From NCBI GenBank assembly GCA_010279815.1, contig QEOQ01000253.1:583977-647976 (forward strand): a stretch of DNA of 64,000 nucleotides, in the 5' to 3' direction. Numbering within the stretch: the first letter of the stretch is position 1; every line of letters begins with the position of its first letter. The translations under genes and the position numbers were made by a program. The notes under the pieces are model-generated. The model did not search any database. It saw only the letters and a program-made list of their open reading frames with translations, and was not told the origin of the DNA. The DNA is from Brachionus plicatilis (Eukaryota; Rotifera; Eurotatoria; Ploima; Brachionidae). This document shows, piece by piece, positions 35,541-60,752 of this stretch.

Positions 35541-37592
35541 TTTTAAAAAATTTTTAAAATTTTAAAAAATTACAAGCGATAATATATTTTGTATTAATTG
35601 AATTAATTTTTTGTGCATAATTCTTTTCGCAAAAGCAAAAATAATTAAACAAATTATCTTGTTGAATTTATTTTAAAAATAATGGATTGATGGTCTAATG
35701 TGCGATTTATTAAATATCTAAGAATAATAAATGACATCGGCTAGGTGAAATTTTAGTACAAAAAGTAAAAATTTTATAATTTATTATCAAATTGTGCAAA
35801 AATGGTTCTGTAAACGGTACAGTTTCGAACAAATTTGTAAAAACGAATTCAATCTCTGCAAAAACTTTGTAATTTTCTGCAAAATCAAAAATATTTGATT
35901 CAAATATTTATATTGTTTGTTAACCAGAAAATTAGAGTTATTTTGAAATAAATGAGAAAGTTAAGTGAATAGTTTATATTTATTGACGAATTTAGTTTTT
36001 TAAATAAAAATCAATTTTATTATAAAAAAAATTTTTTAATTTCATTTTTAGATAGATAGAAATTTTAAATACCTCAACTATTTATTAATGAATTAAGGGG
36101 GGTGAACCAGTGTTATTCAAATTTTAGATCTTGTCAATTTCATCTATAGATCATCCATAGATTATGATCTATAGATCACAAATTTTACTCGAATAATTTG
36201 TTTTGTAAATTTTATTAATTCTAGGTCATATTTTTAAAAAAGCTTTTTTTATTGTAAATTTGGTGATTAAAAAAGAATATATTTAAAAAAACAATCATCA
36301 TATTTACATTAAATTAGATCACAAAATTTCAAATATTTTAAAACTTGGGCCAAAATTTACCAGAAATGATATTTTTAGTCATAATCTCATTAAAAATCGA
36401 AACAATTAAATTTAAAAATAAATAAATGAATATTAAAATTTAGTTAATCTTTAAATTATTTTTTAATAATTGTAAATTTTGTGATATAATTTAATGTAAA
36501 AATGAAAATGGAATTTTTTTAACAACATTTATTTTTTTGATCATAAAATTTGCAATAAAAAATTTAATCAAAACAAATATGATCTAAAGCTCATAAAATT
36601 TTAAGGCTTTCAATCTTAACTTATCTTAACTTATTCAATATAATAGGTATAGTAAAACGACTTAATTTTTTTTTTATTAAATTTTTTTTGAAGTCTAGTT
36701 ATTGAAATGATTTTGAAAATACTTAGAGATGACTTGTTTTTGACTTTTCTAAAAGTCTAGGATGTCCTTAGCCAGCGCATATTCAATAATTGTTAACTTA
36801 AACTCAAATTTTTTAACCTAATATAAGTTCTATTCTAACAGATATTTTCTTAAAGACCAATAAATGCACACAGAACAAGCTAACGCACAAAATAAATATA
36901 ATTTCAGCACAATTTACGGGTCCAGCGCCCCGGTGTTACTTGGCTTTGATTCCTTAATGATCGCCGAGATAGCAGCGCCGTCTCCACTCCAAGTATTAAA
37001 GAGATCTAAACAACAATTATTCTCTAAGGTCAATGTATAGCAGCTACTATAGACGGCTTCCATAGTAAGTCGTCTCCGCAAGCCTGCTTGCTGTAGCTTA
37101 TTATTATTATTTTTATTATTATTACTAATTTAATATGTAAATAAAAAATTGAAACCGCACATTTTTTTTCAAAAACATATTTTAAAATTGTTAAATATTA
37201 ATCTATTTACAAGATTTCATTTAAAGCTTAAAAAAATGTGTTTGATTTAAAAAATGTTCATGGCTACATCGCTTATCTGCAATATTTTGTTAATTAAAAG
37301 CATTAATTCGAGATTAATTTTTAAAAAAAATTATTTATTTTTCATTAATTTATTTCCAATATGGTTAAATTAGAAAATCCTGAAATTAATATATATGTTA
37401 CTCGTTTATGAATTTATTATTTGTCAAATTTAATTCATAGCTTTGACTCGAATTTTCACATTTTTGTTGTATTTGTATGTGATCTTATATACAATCCTGG
37501 AAATAATTCAAAAATTAAAAATAAAATAACATTTTATTTATACTAAACATTTATTCAAATATACAAAAATATTTTTGAAAGTAAAAGTCAAT
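35541..37592. other. Intergenic region between the urease homologue and NSUN5
   Basis: Mostly AT-rich with no gene. It contains the GC-rich island at 36895-37130, listed separately. An AATAAA on the minus strand at 37555-37550, about 40 nt past the urease stop, is the likely polyadenylation signal of that gene. Confidence 0.5.
36895..37130 (+). repeat. GC-rich island ending in (TTA)n, possible retroposon 3' end
   Basis: About 200 bp of mixed, near 50% GC sequence (tttacgggtccagcgccccg ... cgcaagcctgcttgctgtag) stands out sharply from its surroundings and ends in cttattattattatttttattattatta. There is no ORF. The composition and trinucleotide tail suggest the 3' end of a LINE or a SINE. No tRNA-like A/B box pair is evident. 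Confidence 0.45.
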
Positions 37593-40500
37593 CTAAAACA
37601 GATAAAATCTTTGACTGAGTAATTGACTGATTTTCATATTTTCCATGGTTGATTTAACCTCTGGTCTAAGAGGCAAAAGTTGTTTGCTTTGCTGCGTTTC
37701 ATGTTCAATATAATTTAAAGTTCCTTTAGCATGAGCACTTGAATCTAGAATTTAAAAAATTAAGTTAAAATTTTGAATATTTTTTTAAGCTAAATTTATA
37801 AATTATCTCTTAATTTTTATTAAAAGATTTAAATAACTTACAGCTAATTCTTGGACAAAAATTTGCTGGAGACATACTTTGAATTCGATTTAGACTGCGA
37901 CAATCTCTTATCGGTTCAACATGTTTACAAATTCCATAAGTGTTCGTCGCTCCGATTTCATATGAAGCCTTCCAAAAATTATGAAAAATTTTATTTAATT
38001 ATGAAATTAAAGTTTACCTTTGATATAAAAACAACTGAATTAGCACAAGGACTTTTACCACATACGCCCAATACTTGATTAGTCCTTTCAAAACTATTCA
38101 ATTCAGAAAAAACTATTTGTCCTCCTTTGATTACAATTTCAGGCCTAGTGGCAAAAAATTCTGGTCTCCATAGAACCAAATCGGCCATTTTGTTAACTTC
38201 AATGCTTCCTACAGCATGTGAGCAGCCACAAAATACAGCCGGATTAATTGTGTACTTGGCTAGATAGCGTTTCACTCTCTGGTTATCATTTCTAGGTTCA
38301 ATTTTTTCCATTTTTTTCATTGTACTAGCAACTTGCCAGGTTTTATTAATCAAATTTTCAATCATTGACTAAATAAAAATTAAAAAGAATTTAACAAAAA
38401 TATTTTTTTATGATTACTTTTGACCGCTTATTTGAAGAAAACGATGACGACGACACCATACTGATTATACCTAAATCATGAAGGTATTTTTCTAATTCAT
38501 AATTATCTGACTCACTTAGAGCAGATATTCCGATCATGTTTACTTGAGTTAAGATTTCATTTATAAAATCAGATTTAAAAAGACTAGAATTAAAAGCTAT
38601 TCCAGCAACTCTATTTTTTATCAAACTAATGAGATAATCATTTCCATAAGTCTCGTGAAGGGTGTCGATGTCCACTATGGCTAGTACGTCATGAAAATCA
38701 GCGACTCTAAGACATGAATCAATAGCGGCAGGTGTTGCCCCCCAATACTCACTCAATCTCAGACCCATCGCGCCCGAAACTAATTGATCTTCAATTTCTT
38801 TTGGAAAATCGAATGAAGAAGTTTCGTTCGATTTAGATGATGAGCTGTTTGCTTTCGCATAAAATCCAAAATTAATAGGAAGTTCATCAGTACTTTGAAT
38901 CATGTATTTAATATTATTAGGACCTGGAGTGCAGTTTGTTGATGAACTTTCAAATGAGCCTGTTCCTCCACCTTGAGAAAAAGATTTTATTTAATTTTTA
39001 ATTTTTGAATAAATTCTTTTACCAAAAATAGTAGTTATTCCAGAGCCTAATGCAGACAATAAGCTTGATTTTGATTGAAAAAATGAAGATCCAACATCGA
39101 TCGCTCCAGCCGTAATAATAAGTCCTTCTCCACAGATAATATCAGTCCCTGCGCCTACAATCATACCAGCAGTAATGTCCATTGTGTGAGGATTACCAGC
39201 TTTGCCAACTCCATGAATCATTCCATCTTTTATTCCAATGTCTGCTTTAAAAATGCCTGACACGCTATCAATCACTACTACATTGGTGATTACAGTATCC
39301 AAAGCAATATCATTTCTCATGCTTACACTTTGTCCAAGACCTTCTCTTAAATTCTAAAATATTTTTATAAACTTGAAAAAACATTTTTAGTATTAATTTA
39401 ATACTTTTCCGATCCCGAAAGTTAGTTCATCTCCATAAATTGTGAAATCTTTTTCTATTTCTATAACTAAATTAGTATCTGCCAATTTAATCTAAACAAA
39501 GCTAATTTTAGCGAAAAATTAATCACTGAATTTTCGAAGATACTTTGTCGCCTCTTGTTGGTCCATATTTTTTTATGTAGATTTCTCTAGGTATTTTTGA
39601 GTATTTATCTATCATCAACTGATTTTCTTCATTTATTTTTATTTCCTAAAAATACAAAATTAGAAAAAAATAGAGGCCATATTTTCTATGCACAAAAATT
39701 TGTACAAAAAATTTCAAATTTATTTTTATCACTATAATTTGTTTAAGAAAAAGAATGCTGTTTAATGAAGTAGCAATAAAAATTATTTTCAAAGCAAATA
39801 TGATATAAAAAGGAGAAAATATAGCATGAAGTAGATTAAATAAAATATTATTAAAAAAATATAGTGTTGAACATTTATATTAAATAGCAAAAATAATCTT
39901 TTTAAGAATGATATTATATTTGCTATTATTTTTATTTTTTTACTACGATTTCAATTAGCTTTAGTGCGAAAATAATTTTTAGTATTAAGAAAAATGTTAG
40001 TCATTAAAAATTGATTAAAAAAATTGACTTAAAATTAATGATATTTAAAAAGAGGGGTCTAAAAAAAAGAGTGAAAAATAGTCAAACTCAAAAATTGTAG
40101 ATCGTCAAAAATTAGAAATTTAATTTAACTAATTTGAAAATTTGCAATATTTAGACTTTCTATCTTAGAGTAAAATCATTCTAGCATTCACATATACAAG
40201 TCAAAATTTTAAATTTAAGTAATGTGACCCGATATTAAATTTTTGTAGAAGTTTAATGGCATTATTGATAAATCTTTGATTTAGGTGAATTTTTTTTTTG
40301 ATCCTAAAATTTTTTAGTAATATAATCTAATAACTTACTTAATAAAATATAAATAATGACTTTAATTTAATATATTTATTTATTCCAGTATTAAAAAATT
40401 AGCATTCGTAAATGATATTCCTTAAACCTAGCAAAATTATTTATTTGATAAAATTTTTTATCTTATTCAAGTTTTTCAGTAAAATTTTATTTAAAAATAC

Positions 40501-41650
40501 CTCTTGATGCTTATTAGCAAATGATTTTTTATTCAATTTTTTTAGAGTCTTCTTAAGCAAATCATCATTTATTTTGCCATCGACCAAGTAATTACCACCT
40601 TTTATAACTCTAAAAAATATTAACTCGTTTTTAAATTCAAGAAATTTTAGTGTTATTACTTTAAACCAGCGATTTTTATAATAGGAACAATTTTTGTGGT
40701 CTTCGGTTCAAATTCGATCCAGTCACCAGATGGTATATTCTTTTCAAAATTTTATTAAAAATTAAAATAAAATAAAAACCAAAATCTTTACCAATCTTTT
40801 TCCGAAAGCAAGATTTCGATCAAATTGTAATGCTTTGTTTGCTTCAATTAAATTGAAGTGACTTCCAATCTTTTTCAAAATATTTAATTGATTTAAATTT
40901 AAAAAATTAAATACTTTAATTAGTTCATTGCTAGGGTTCGTGACACTCAGTAATGACACTTGTCCTTTCTCTTTGTTGATCTCAATGAAGTCACTGAGAA
41001 TTTCATCATCATTATTCATGTTTTGATTTTCATCGATTTCGCCCTCATCCAATGTTTCTTTTGGTGAATTATCAGACTTAAATGGAATAATATGGCCAGG
41101 GTGCATTTCTTCTGCACTAAAATCTCCATTTGCTTCTTTCATTTGAATGTCTGTTTCGTTTTTAGACTCACAATTGAAAGAATTCGTAATGGGCAAATAA
41201 CTACCGTATAGAGCAAGTTCAATGTTTCCATATTCGGTACAAATAGGGTCTTTTACAAATACCTTTTTTAAGAAGATTATTTTTTTAACTAGGAATTTAA
41301 CATTAAAATAAATCACAAACATTTTTTAAACCCTCGGAAAACGTTGCTTCAACAGAAAGCTCTCTAAGCATTTTGCTTACGCCACTTTGAACCATTTTTC
41401 GCCCAACAATTTGCTTAGCTTTTTCAGTAACTTCTTCGAAAGATTGACCATCTCGAGCAAATTCTAAGATCTAAATATTTTTTGACAAATAGAATTGTAA
41501 ACAAAACGCCTGATAAGGCTATACTTGAGCTGATATTAAAGCAATTGATTCCGGGTAGTTTAAATGTATTCCTCTGGACAGTCTTTTTTGCGCCAAAAAT
41601 CCCGCGTTATGAATTAATAAACAATCAATTTCTCTTTCGGTAAGTCTCAT
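37593..41650 (-). CDS. Full-length urease homologue lacking all nickel ligands (pseudoenzyme), 879 aa
   Basis: Twelve exons: 41650-41525, 41470-41321, 41262-40792, 40739-40660, 40609-40501, 39645-39544, 39491-39405, 39353-39023, 38971-38418, 38368-38018, 37968-37842, 37744-37593. All phases agree (2,640 nt). The order is that of plant/fungal fused urease: gamma part ([29 protein letters not shown]), beta part ([17 protein letters not shown]), alpha part ([93 protein letters not shown]) and the typical end SQRFYLF. Active ureases hold two Ni ions with four His, one carbamylated Lys and one Asp. Here HxH after TAGAID is GSS, the Lys in GLKLHEDW is Arg (GLRLSEYW) with the nearby His also lost, the His before TDTLNE is Asp, the HTYHSEGAGGGHAP loop is gone, and the Asp of ISSDSQ is Ser. 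The span from the lost His to the lost Asp is about 40 residues shorter, removing the mobile flap. It cannot hydrolyse urea by the known mechanism; its role is unknown. Confidence 0.9.
39646..40500. other. Long intron 5 of the urease homologue (855 nt)
   Basis: AT-rich with no ORF or recognisable repeat. The other introns of the gene are mostly about 50-100 nt. Confidence 0.7.
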
Positions 41651-53127: not shown

Positions 53128-53199
53128 GGTTCTATGGTGTAACGGTTAGCACTCTGGACTCTGAATCCAGCGATCCGAGTTCAAATCTCGGTAGAACCT
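53128..53199 (+). tRNA. tRNA-Gln (anticodon CTG)
   Basis: 72 nt including discriminator T. The acceptor stem GGTTCTA/TAGAACC pairs fully, the anticodon stem CTGGA/TCCAG holds the loop CTCTGAA with anticodon CTG, and the T arm is CCGAG TTCAAAT CTCGG. Box A and box B are canonical. A T5 terminator follows within 10 nt. It is nearly identical to the animal tRNA-Gln consensus. Confidence 0.97.
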
Positions 53200-53253
53200 T
53201 TATTTTTGTTGTTTAAATTTAAATCTTTTTACTAATATTTTTAAAAAAAATAA

Positions 53254-53325
53254 AGGTTCTACCGAGATTTGAACTCGGATCGCTGGATTCAGAGTCCAGA
53301 GTGCTAACCGTTACACCATAGAACC
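53254..53325 (-). tRNA. tRNA-Gln (anticodon CTG)
   Basis: Identical in sequence to the gene at 53128-53199 but on the opposite strand, 54 nt away and convergent. A T-run terminator (tttattttttttaa on the minus strand) lies in the shared spacer. Confidence 0.97.
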
Positions 53326-60553: not shown

Positions 60554-60625
60554 GGTTCTATGGTGTAACGGTTAGCACTCTGGACTCTGAATCCAGCGAT
60601 CCGAGTTCAAATCTCGGTAGAACCT
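60554..60625 (+). tRNA. tRNA-Gln (anticodon CTG)
   Basis: Identical over all 72 nt to the genes at 53128-53199 and 53254-53325, with the same flank and a T5 terminator. Confidence 0.97.
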
Positions 60626-60680
60626 TTATTTTTGTTGTTTAAATTTAAATCTTTTTTACTAATATATTTAAAAAAAATAA

Positions 60681-60752
60681 AGGTTCTACCGAGATTTGAA
60701 CTCGGATCGCTGGATTCAGAGTCCAGATTGCTAACCGTTACACCATAGAACC
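60681..60752 (-). tRNA. tRNA-Gln (anticodon CTG) with a D-stem mismatch
   Basis: Same as the other three copies except one base: GTTAGCAA replaces GTTAGCAC, changing C25 of the D stem to A and breaking the pair with G10. The remaining stems are intact. It may still be transcribed but could be a decaying copy. Confidence 0.9.

What the first reader, a model, noticed from the sequence alone, without database searches (positions are those of the whole stretch)
37593..41650. A complete animal urease homologue in which every nickel ligand has been lost
Twelve exons join in phase into 879 codons with normal urease start, gamma-beta-alpha order and C-terminus, and the structural motifs are well kept. 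Yet all six metal-ligand positions known from ureases (four His, the carbamylated Lys, the Asp) are changed or deleted, and the flap loop with its Cys-His is shortened away. Selective loss of the active site in an otherwise maintained fold points to a pseudoenzyme with a new structural, binding or regulatory role rather than a decaying gene. I know of no described function for such a protein. Ancestry in the animal or in a transferred gene cannot be told from the window.
Basis: partly seen in the sequence, partly recalled or inferred. Interest (0 to 1): 0.88.

Follow-up and report, generated by a model that had tools for sequence, protein, structure and literature searches.

The report
Rotifers' nickel-free, dead urease
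This rotifer gene encodes a complete relative of urease, the nickel enzyme that splits urea, but the whole metal site is gone; other rotifers show the same loss, so the protein has probably been kept for some other job that is not yet known.

Summary
The product is a fused gamma-beta-alpha urease homologue. None of the six nickel-ligand positions is kept, and the stretch that carries the third-from-last ligand and the flap is 39 residues shorter than in active ureases. Eight rotifer relatives (monogonont and bdelloid; three unnamed, assigned by tree) lack all six as well: 0 of 9 rotifer sequences keep any, while 238 of 242 other fetched ureases keep all six. The loss is therefore old, most simply a single event, and lies inside the animal urease lineage. 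Two ligand positions carry the same new residue in all nine (Lys to Arg, His to Asp), which speaks for a rebuilt pocket, not decay. Whole-genome searches found no other urease locus and no UreD, UreF or UreG match. Predicted folds remain urease-like over nearly the whole length. Best reading: an ancient rotifer pseudo-urease kept as a binding or scaffold protein, comparable to CRMPs among dihydropyrimidinases. Expression in this species, dN/dS and function were not tested.

The parts
37593..41650 (-). pseudo-urease gene: 13 exons at 41650-41525, 41470-41321, 41262-40915, 40869-40792, 40739-40660, 40609-40501, 39645-39544, 39491-39405, 39353-39023, 38971-38418, 38368-38018, 37968-37842, 37744-37593 (stop 37595-37593)
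41239..41650 (-). gamma-like domain, about residues 1-100
   Evidence: TIGR00193 over its cut-off
40992..41181 (-). acidic linker between the gamma and beta domains, about residues 120-182, mostly low-confidence in the model
40504..40992 (-). beta-like domain, about residues 183-296
37596..39600 (-). alpha-like (TIM barrel) domain, about residues 313-864
39084..39092 (-). former HxH ligand pair H134 and H136, now Gly448 and Ser450
39072..39074 (-). Ser454 in place of the Cys of the HxHFxC motif, Ser in 9 of 9 rotifer sequences
38757..38759 (-). Arg542 in place of the carbamylated Lys217, Arg in 9 of 9 rotifer sequences
38670..38672 (-). Asp571 in place of His246, Asp in 9 of 9 rotifer sequences
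38448..38669 (-). shortened stretch (74 residues against 113) that in active ureases carries His272 and the flap Cys319-His320
38445..38447 (-). Ser646 in place of Asp360 (Ser in 8, Thr in 1 of 9 rotifer sequences)

Best explanation
The gene encodes a non-catalytic urease-fold protein (pseudo-urease) that was already metal-site-free before monogonont and bdelloid rotifers split. Shown: it descends from the ordinary fused eukaryotic urease, keeps the gamma-beta-alpha order, and has none of the six nickel ligands; the genome searches found no other urease locus and no match to UreD, UreF or UreG. Inferred: it cannot hold two nickel ions or hydrolyse urea; it still folds as a urease-like subunit and probably still forms the urease trimer; the empty site was re-packed, with Arg542 and Asp571 (former Lys217 and His246) plausibly pairing where nickel and carbamate sat. 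Most likely use: an oligomeric scaffold or binding protein whose useful feature is the assembled surface or the closed pocket, not chemistry, much as CRMPs stand to dihydropyrimidinase. My estimates: pseudoenzyme under selection about 0.8; given that, a scaffold or binding role about 0.6; the Arg-Asp pair about 0.5.
For: 0 of 9 rotifer sequences keep any of six ligands, 238 of 242 other fetched ureases keep all six. Of 300 columns conserved in 238 active ureases, 1 of 48 in the loop stretch is unchanged in all nine rotifers against 135 of 252 elsewhere (Fisher p 6e-13). Three columns have one and the same new residue in 9 of 9: C454S, K542R, H571D; two of them are ligand columns. Rotifer clade 100/100, among animal ureases. 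The window and P0001 differ at 7 of the first 843 residues, none at a former ligand. One urease locus only; no UreD, UreF, UreG match. AlphaFold models of a Brachionus and a bdelloid member align to jack bean urease over 772 and 776 residues at 2.6 and 2.7 A. Three unnamed relatives come from contigs of 2741-2986 bases with uninterrupted frames of 863-894 codons, as expected of spliced transcripts (inference).
Against: No transcript of this gene was examined and no dN/dS could be computed, as no second nucleotide sequence was at hand. Rotifer branches are long (stem 1.16 changes per column, then 0.9-1.6 to the tips, against about 0.3-0.7 for other animals), so constraint is looser than in active ureases. 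Models have only middling confidence (pLDDT 75.6 and 73.7), were built with alignments dominated by active ureases (34 of 42 and 28 of 36 rows), and are monomers: trimer and Arg-Asp contact were not tested. The unanimity of new residues can be shared descent alone, and the excess at ligand columns is modest (p 0.03). Absence of UreD/F/G rests on profile searches exon by exon without an animal positive control.
Confidence: 0.75

Rival explanations
1. A new enzyme: the pocket was rebuilt for another, metal-free or differently metalled reaction, so the protein is a neo-enzyme and not a pseudoenzyme.
For: Fixed Arg, Asp and Ser at former active-site positions in 9 of 9, 9 of 9 and 8 of 9 sequences could be catalytic as well as structural.
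Against: The rest of the pocket differs between monogononts and bdelloids (former H134, H136, H219, D221) and the loop over it has different lengths (67-74 against 84), which is unlike a shared catalytic site.
Confidence: 0.12
2. Retained moonlighting: ureases have enzyme-independent activities, and rotifers lost the chemistry but kept such an old side function.
For: Enzyme-independent activities of plant and bacterial ureases are described (abstract passage of PMC5472951). This would explain why the fold was kept when chemistry went.
Against: No such role is known to me for an animal urease; the gamma-beta linker was remodelled in monogononts. It overlaps with the main reading and differs only in the age of the function.
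Confidence: 0.07
3. A decaying gene under relaxed selection with no function.
For: Long rotifer branches; no transcripts or dN/dS examined.
Against: Nine long open frames across monogononts and bdelloids, 136 of 300 core columns unchanged in all nine, fixed new residues, seven differences in 843 residues between the two B. plicatilis-type sequences.
Confidence: 0.04
4. Gene-model or assembly artefact; the true active-site exon was missed.
For: No result here points to it, beyond the small disagreements between guide proteins at exon edges.
Against: The changed residues lie inside well-aligned exons; P0001 and seven other rotifer proteins agree; no active-site exon in the window or elsewhere in the genome.
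Confidence: 0.02

Closest known systems
Fused eukaryotic urease (jack bean 3LA4/7KNS; ureases of molluscs, brachiopods, echinoderms, cnidarians, chelicerates)
   Same: Gamma-beta-alpha order, length, fold and ancestry
   Different: All six nickel ligands and the flap Cys-His are lost, and the loop stretch is shortened
CRMPs (dihydropyrimidinase-like proteins of animals)
   Same: Same superfamily; oligomeric relatives of a metal hydrolase for which no such activity has been observed (passages of PMC4051505); CRMP5 and CRMP2 appear in the fold list at ranks 48 and 50
   Different: Derived from dihydropyrimidinase, not urease; neuronal role known there, no role known here. Loss of the metal ligands in CRMPs is recalled
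Klebsiella urease variants K217A/C/E and H134A
   Same: Folded ureases with a ligand removed, listed among the structural matches; that they lose nickel and activity is recalled
   Different: Single laboratory changes, not a natural loss of all six ligands

Membership tests
Urease, as a family by descent | gamma, beta and alpha domains in urease order | tested here: met
   PDB ureases match in three consecutive stretches, E 5e-165 (rough join); gamma model TIGR00193 98.8 bits over its cut-off of 82.3, alpha subfamily NF009686 443 over 354; beta model TIGR00192 81.6 just under 90.3
Urease, as a working nickel enzyme | curated equivalog model of urease alpha, TIGR01792 | tested here: not met
   407.9 bits against a cut-off of 680; P0003 399.1 and bdelloid P0005 545.4 fail too, Mytilus P0008 910.5 passes
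Urease, as a working nickel enzyme | six nickel ligands | tested here: not met
   0 of 6 in the window and in the eight rotifer relatives
Urease, as a working nickel enzyme | flap with Cys319 and His320 | tested here: not met
   gaps in 9 of 9 rotifer sequences
Urease, as a working nickel enzyme | maturation proteins UreD, UreF, UreG in the genome | tested here: inconclusive
   no match; controls rang in 2, 2 and 6 of 14 prokaryote genomes, but no animal control was available; UreE was not sought
Urease, as a working nickel enzyme | nickel content and urea hydrolysis | not testable with these tools
   needs purified protein
Pseudoenzyme | catalytic residues lost in a kept fold | tested here: met
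   (fold from prediction)
Pseudoenzyme | kept by selection | tested here: inconclusive
   clade-wide long open frames and conserved columns; dN/dS not available
CRMP | descent from dihydropyrimidinase | tested here: not met
CRMP | non-enzymatic oligomeric adaptor role | not tested
   analogy only

The most novel reading that the evidence does not exclude
Rotifers turned the animal urease into a clade-wide structural or regulatory protein by replacing its dinickel centre with a protein-only core (an Arg-Asp pair, Ser in place of the Asp ligand) on their stem: a natural pseudo-urease with an unknown, possibly rotifer-specific cell function.
Probability: 0.45. Interest if true: 0.85.

Novelty: new variant of a known kind. 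Interest (0 to 1): 0.72.

Why it matters
I found no description of a natural urease without its metal site (searches, open-access papers only). If right, the database label 'urease' on rotifer proteins is misleading, and so is any inference from it that rotifers use nickel or hydrolyse urea. It offers an old, apparently single-origin case in which a demanding metalloenzyme with its own maturation machinery became a metal-free protein, with active relatives in other animal phyla for comparison, and a testable question in a small cultured animal: what is a urease fold good for without urease chemistry?

Tried and rejected
Active urease elsewhere in the genome: the Pfam Urease_alpha model and a whole Mytilus urease found only this locus. 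Alternative active-site exon: none in the window. Horizontal transfer into rotifers: not favoured, since the clade sits among animal ureases; but the animal-only node has 92/90, one unnamed sequence (P0109) falls outside the named animals, and the alveolate Vitrella sits just outside.

Reason for the loss: no uricase match (controls rang in 2 of 14); an arginase-family gene is present; the allantoicase search says nothing, because none of its controls rang.

Acanthocephalan relatives: none named in those lists. A paper on an acanthocephalan groups 23 proteins as nickel ureases/hydrogenases, most similar to other Acanthocephala and Rotifera (PMC12274423, passages seen); the passages do not examine ligand residues. 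PMC3745609 mentions urease only in a reference title.

Non-rotifer exceptions: P0060 and P0085 lack D360, P0217 and P0226 lack H134 and H136; I take them for imperfect gene models, untested. Trimer contacts and the Arg-Asp distance could not be measured, as no coordinates were available.

Full report
What was checked. The window lies in a 103-Mb genome of 173 contigs; its own G+C is 24%. The nearest protein found is 'urease isoform X1 [Brachionus plicatilis]', 97% identical over 98%, so the source is B. plicatilis or a very close relative. Neighbouring frames match NSUN5-type, G-patch, chitin-binding and eIF2A-type domains, as in an animal chromosome; a contaminant is unlikely.

Gene model. 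A spliced alignment with three guide proteins agrees on the exons apart from P0001's run-on past the stop, a 12-15 nt micro-exon in the long intron proposed by two guides only, and a few bases at the last junction in one. All 12 introns are GT-AG; the coding sequence is 2595 nt with one terminal stop; G+C at codon positions 1, 2, 3 is 0.42, 0.36, 0.25 and in introns 0.17.

Active site. In an alignment of all 250 fetched proteins plus the window product, 238 of 242 non-rotifer sequences hold H134, H136, K217, H246, H272 and D360; the other four each lack one or two. None of nine rotifer sequences (window, P0001-P0006, P0121, P0122) holds any. The flap Cys-His columns are gaps in all nine; among non-rotifers two plant rows also have gaps there and a few have other residues. 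Between the H246 and D360 columns lie 67-74 residues in the five monogonont-type rows, 84 in the four bdelloid rows and 113 in the four active ureases measured. The alignment of H272 in the shortened loop is uncertain, but none of the nine has a histidine in that column. Ligand numbering and roles are recalled.

Pattern of loss. Of 300 columns conserved at 97% or more in 238 active ureases, 1 of 48 in the loop stretch is unchanged in all nine rotifers, against 135 of 252 elsewhere (Fisher p 6e-13). Seventy-five columns are changed in all nine, 42 of them with a residue present in all nine; in three of the 42 all nine share one new residue: Ser454 (Cys of the HxHFxC motif), Arg542 (K217) and Asp571 (H246). 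That two of three are ligand columns has a chance of 0.03 among the 42, and shared descent weakens even this. D360 is Ser in eight and Thr in one. An Arg-Asp pair filling the former metal site is my inference; no coordinates were available to measure it.

Relatives and ancestry. Named rotifer sequences: B. plicatilis, Adineta vaga, Adineta ricciae, Rotaria socialis, Didymodactylos carnosus; three more of source 'lgn' have no name and group with Brachionus. Rotaria P0006 lacks a short alpha-domain segment in its record. The unnamed three come from contigs of 2741-2986 bases with uninterrupted frames of 863-894 codons, as spliced transcripts would (inference). The rotifer clade has 100/100 and stands among animal ureases at 92/90 in a 26-row tree; in a 36-row quick tree rotifers and the named animals group at SH-aLRT 99. 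Ureases with all six ligands were fetched from cnidarians, molluscs, an annelid, a brachiopod, a priapulid, echinoderms, hemichordates, a lancelet, chelicerates and tardigrades (names; ligands). The simplest history is one loss on the rotifer stem. Rotifer branches are long (stem 1.16, then 0.9-1.6 to the tips, against about 0.3-0.7 for other animals), so constraint is looser, yet 136 of 300 core columns are unchanged in all nine and window and P0001 differ at 7 of the first 843 residues.

Genome context. One urease locus. UreD, UreF and UreG models: no match, with controls ringing in 2, 2 and 6 of 14 prokaryote genomes. The CobW model found one gene here with a 464-residue frame, so a GTPase of UreG's wider family is detectable; the UreG model itself did not match. 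Uricase: no match. Arginase family: two adjacent matches, probably one gene. The animal thus seems to have no urease-based urea hydrolysis.

Curated models. The window product passes the urease gamma model and an alpha subfamily model but fails the urease alpha equivalog (407.9 against 680 bits) and, narrowly, the beta model; an active Mytilus urease passes them.

Mechanism. Committed reading: a pseudo-urease used as an oligomeric binding or scaffold protein. CRMPs are the precedent in the same superfamily: structurally like dihydropyrimidinase, no such activity observed, tetrameric (passages of PMC4051505). A second precedent is that ureases have enzyme-independent activities (abstract passage of PMC5472951), so a side function could have outlived the chemistry.

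Known or new. Seven full-text searches of an open-access library brought up no pseudo-urease and no study of a rotifer urease among the titles listed (not all matches are listed, and subscription papers and preprints are not held). One 2025 paper files acanthocephalan proteins similar to rotifer ones under nickel ureases/hydrogenases (PMC12274423, passages). I rate it a new variant of a known kind: pseudoenzymes of this superfamily exist, a pseudo-urease seems undescribed.

Noticed in passing
window 36905-37100: A dispersed repeat of about 185 bp (40 matches besides itself, a lower bound). Read by eye, its reverse complement encodes the odd C-terminal tail of the B. plicatilis database model P0001 (isoform X1), so that model seems to splice into a repeat in place of the conserved urease-type C-terminus that the window keeps.
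   Followed up: partly
window 53128-53325 and 60554-60752: Four tRNA-Gln(CTG) genes arranged as two inverted pairs, each pair about 55 bases apart.
   Followed up: no
window 40992-41181: Monogonont-type pseudo-ureases have a long acidic, probably disordered linker between the gamma and beta domains; bdelloid and other animal sequences have a shorter one.
   Followed up: no
L003:1417-2811: A 464-residue CobW-type GTPase frame without introns, the only match of the CobW model in the genome.
   Followed up: no
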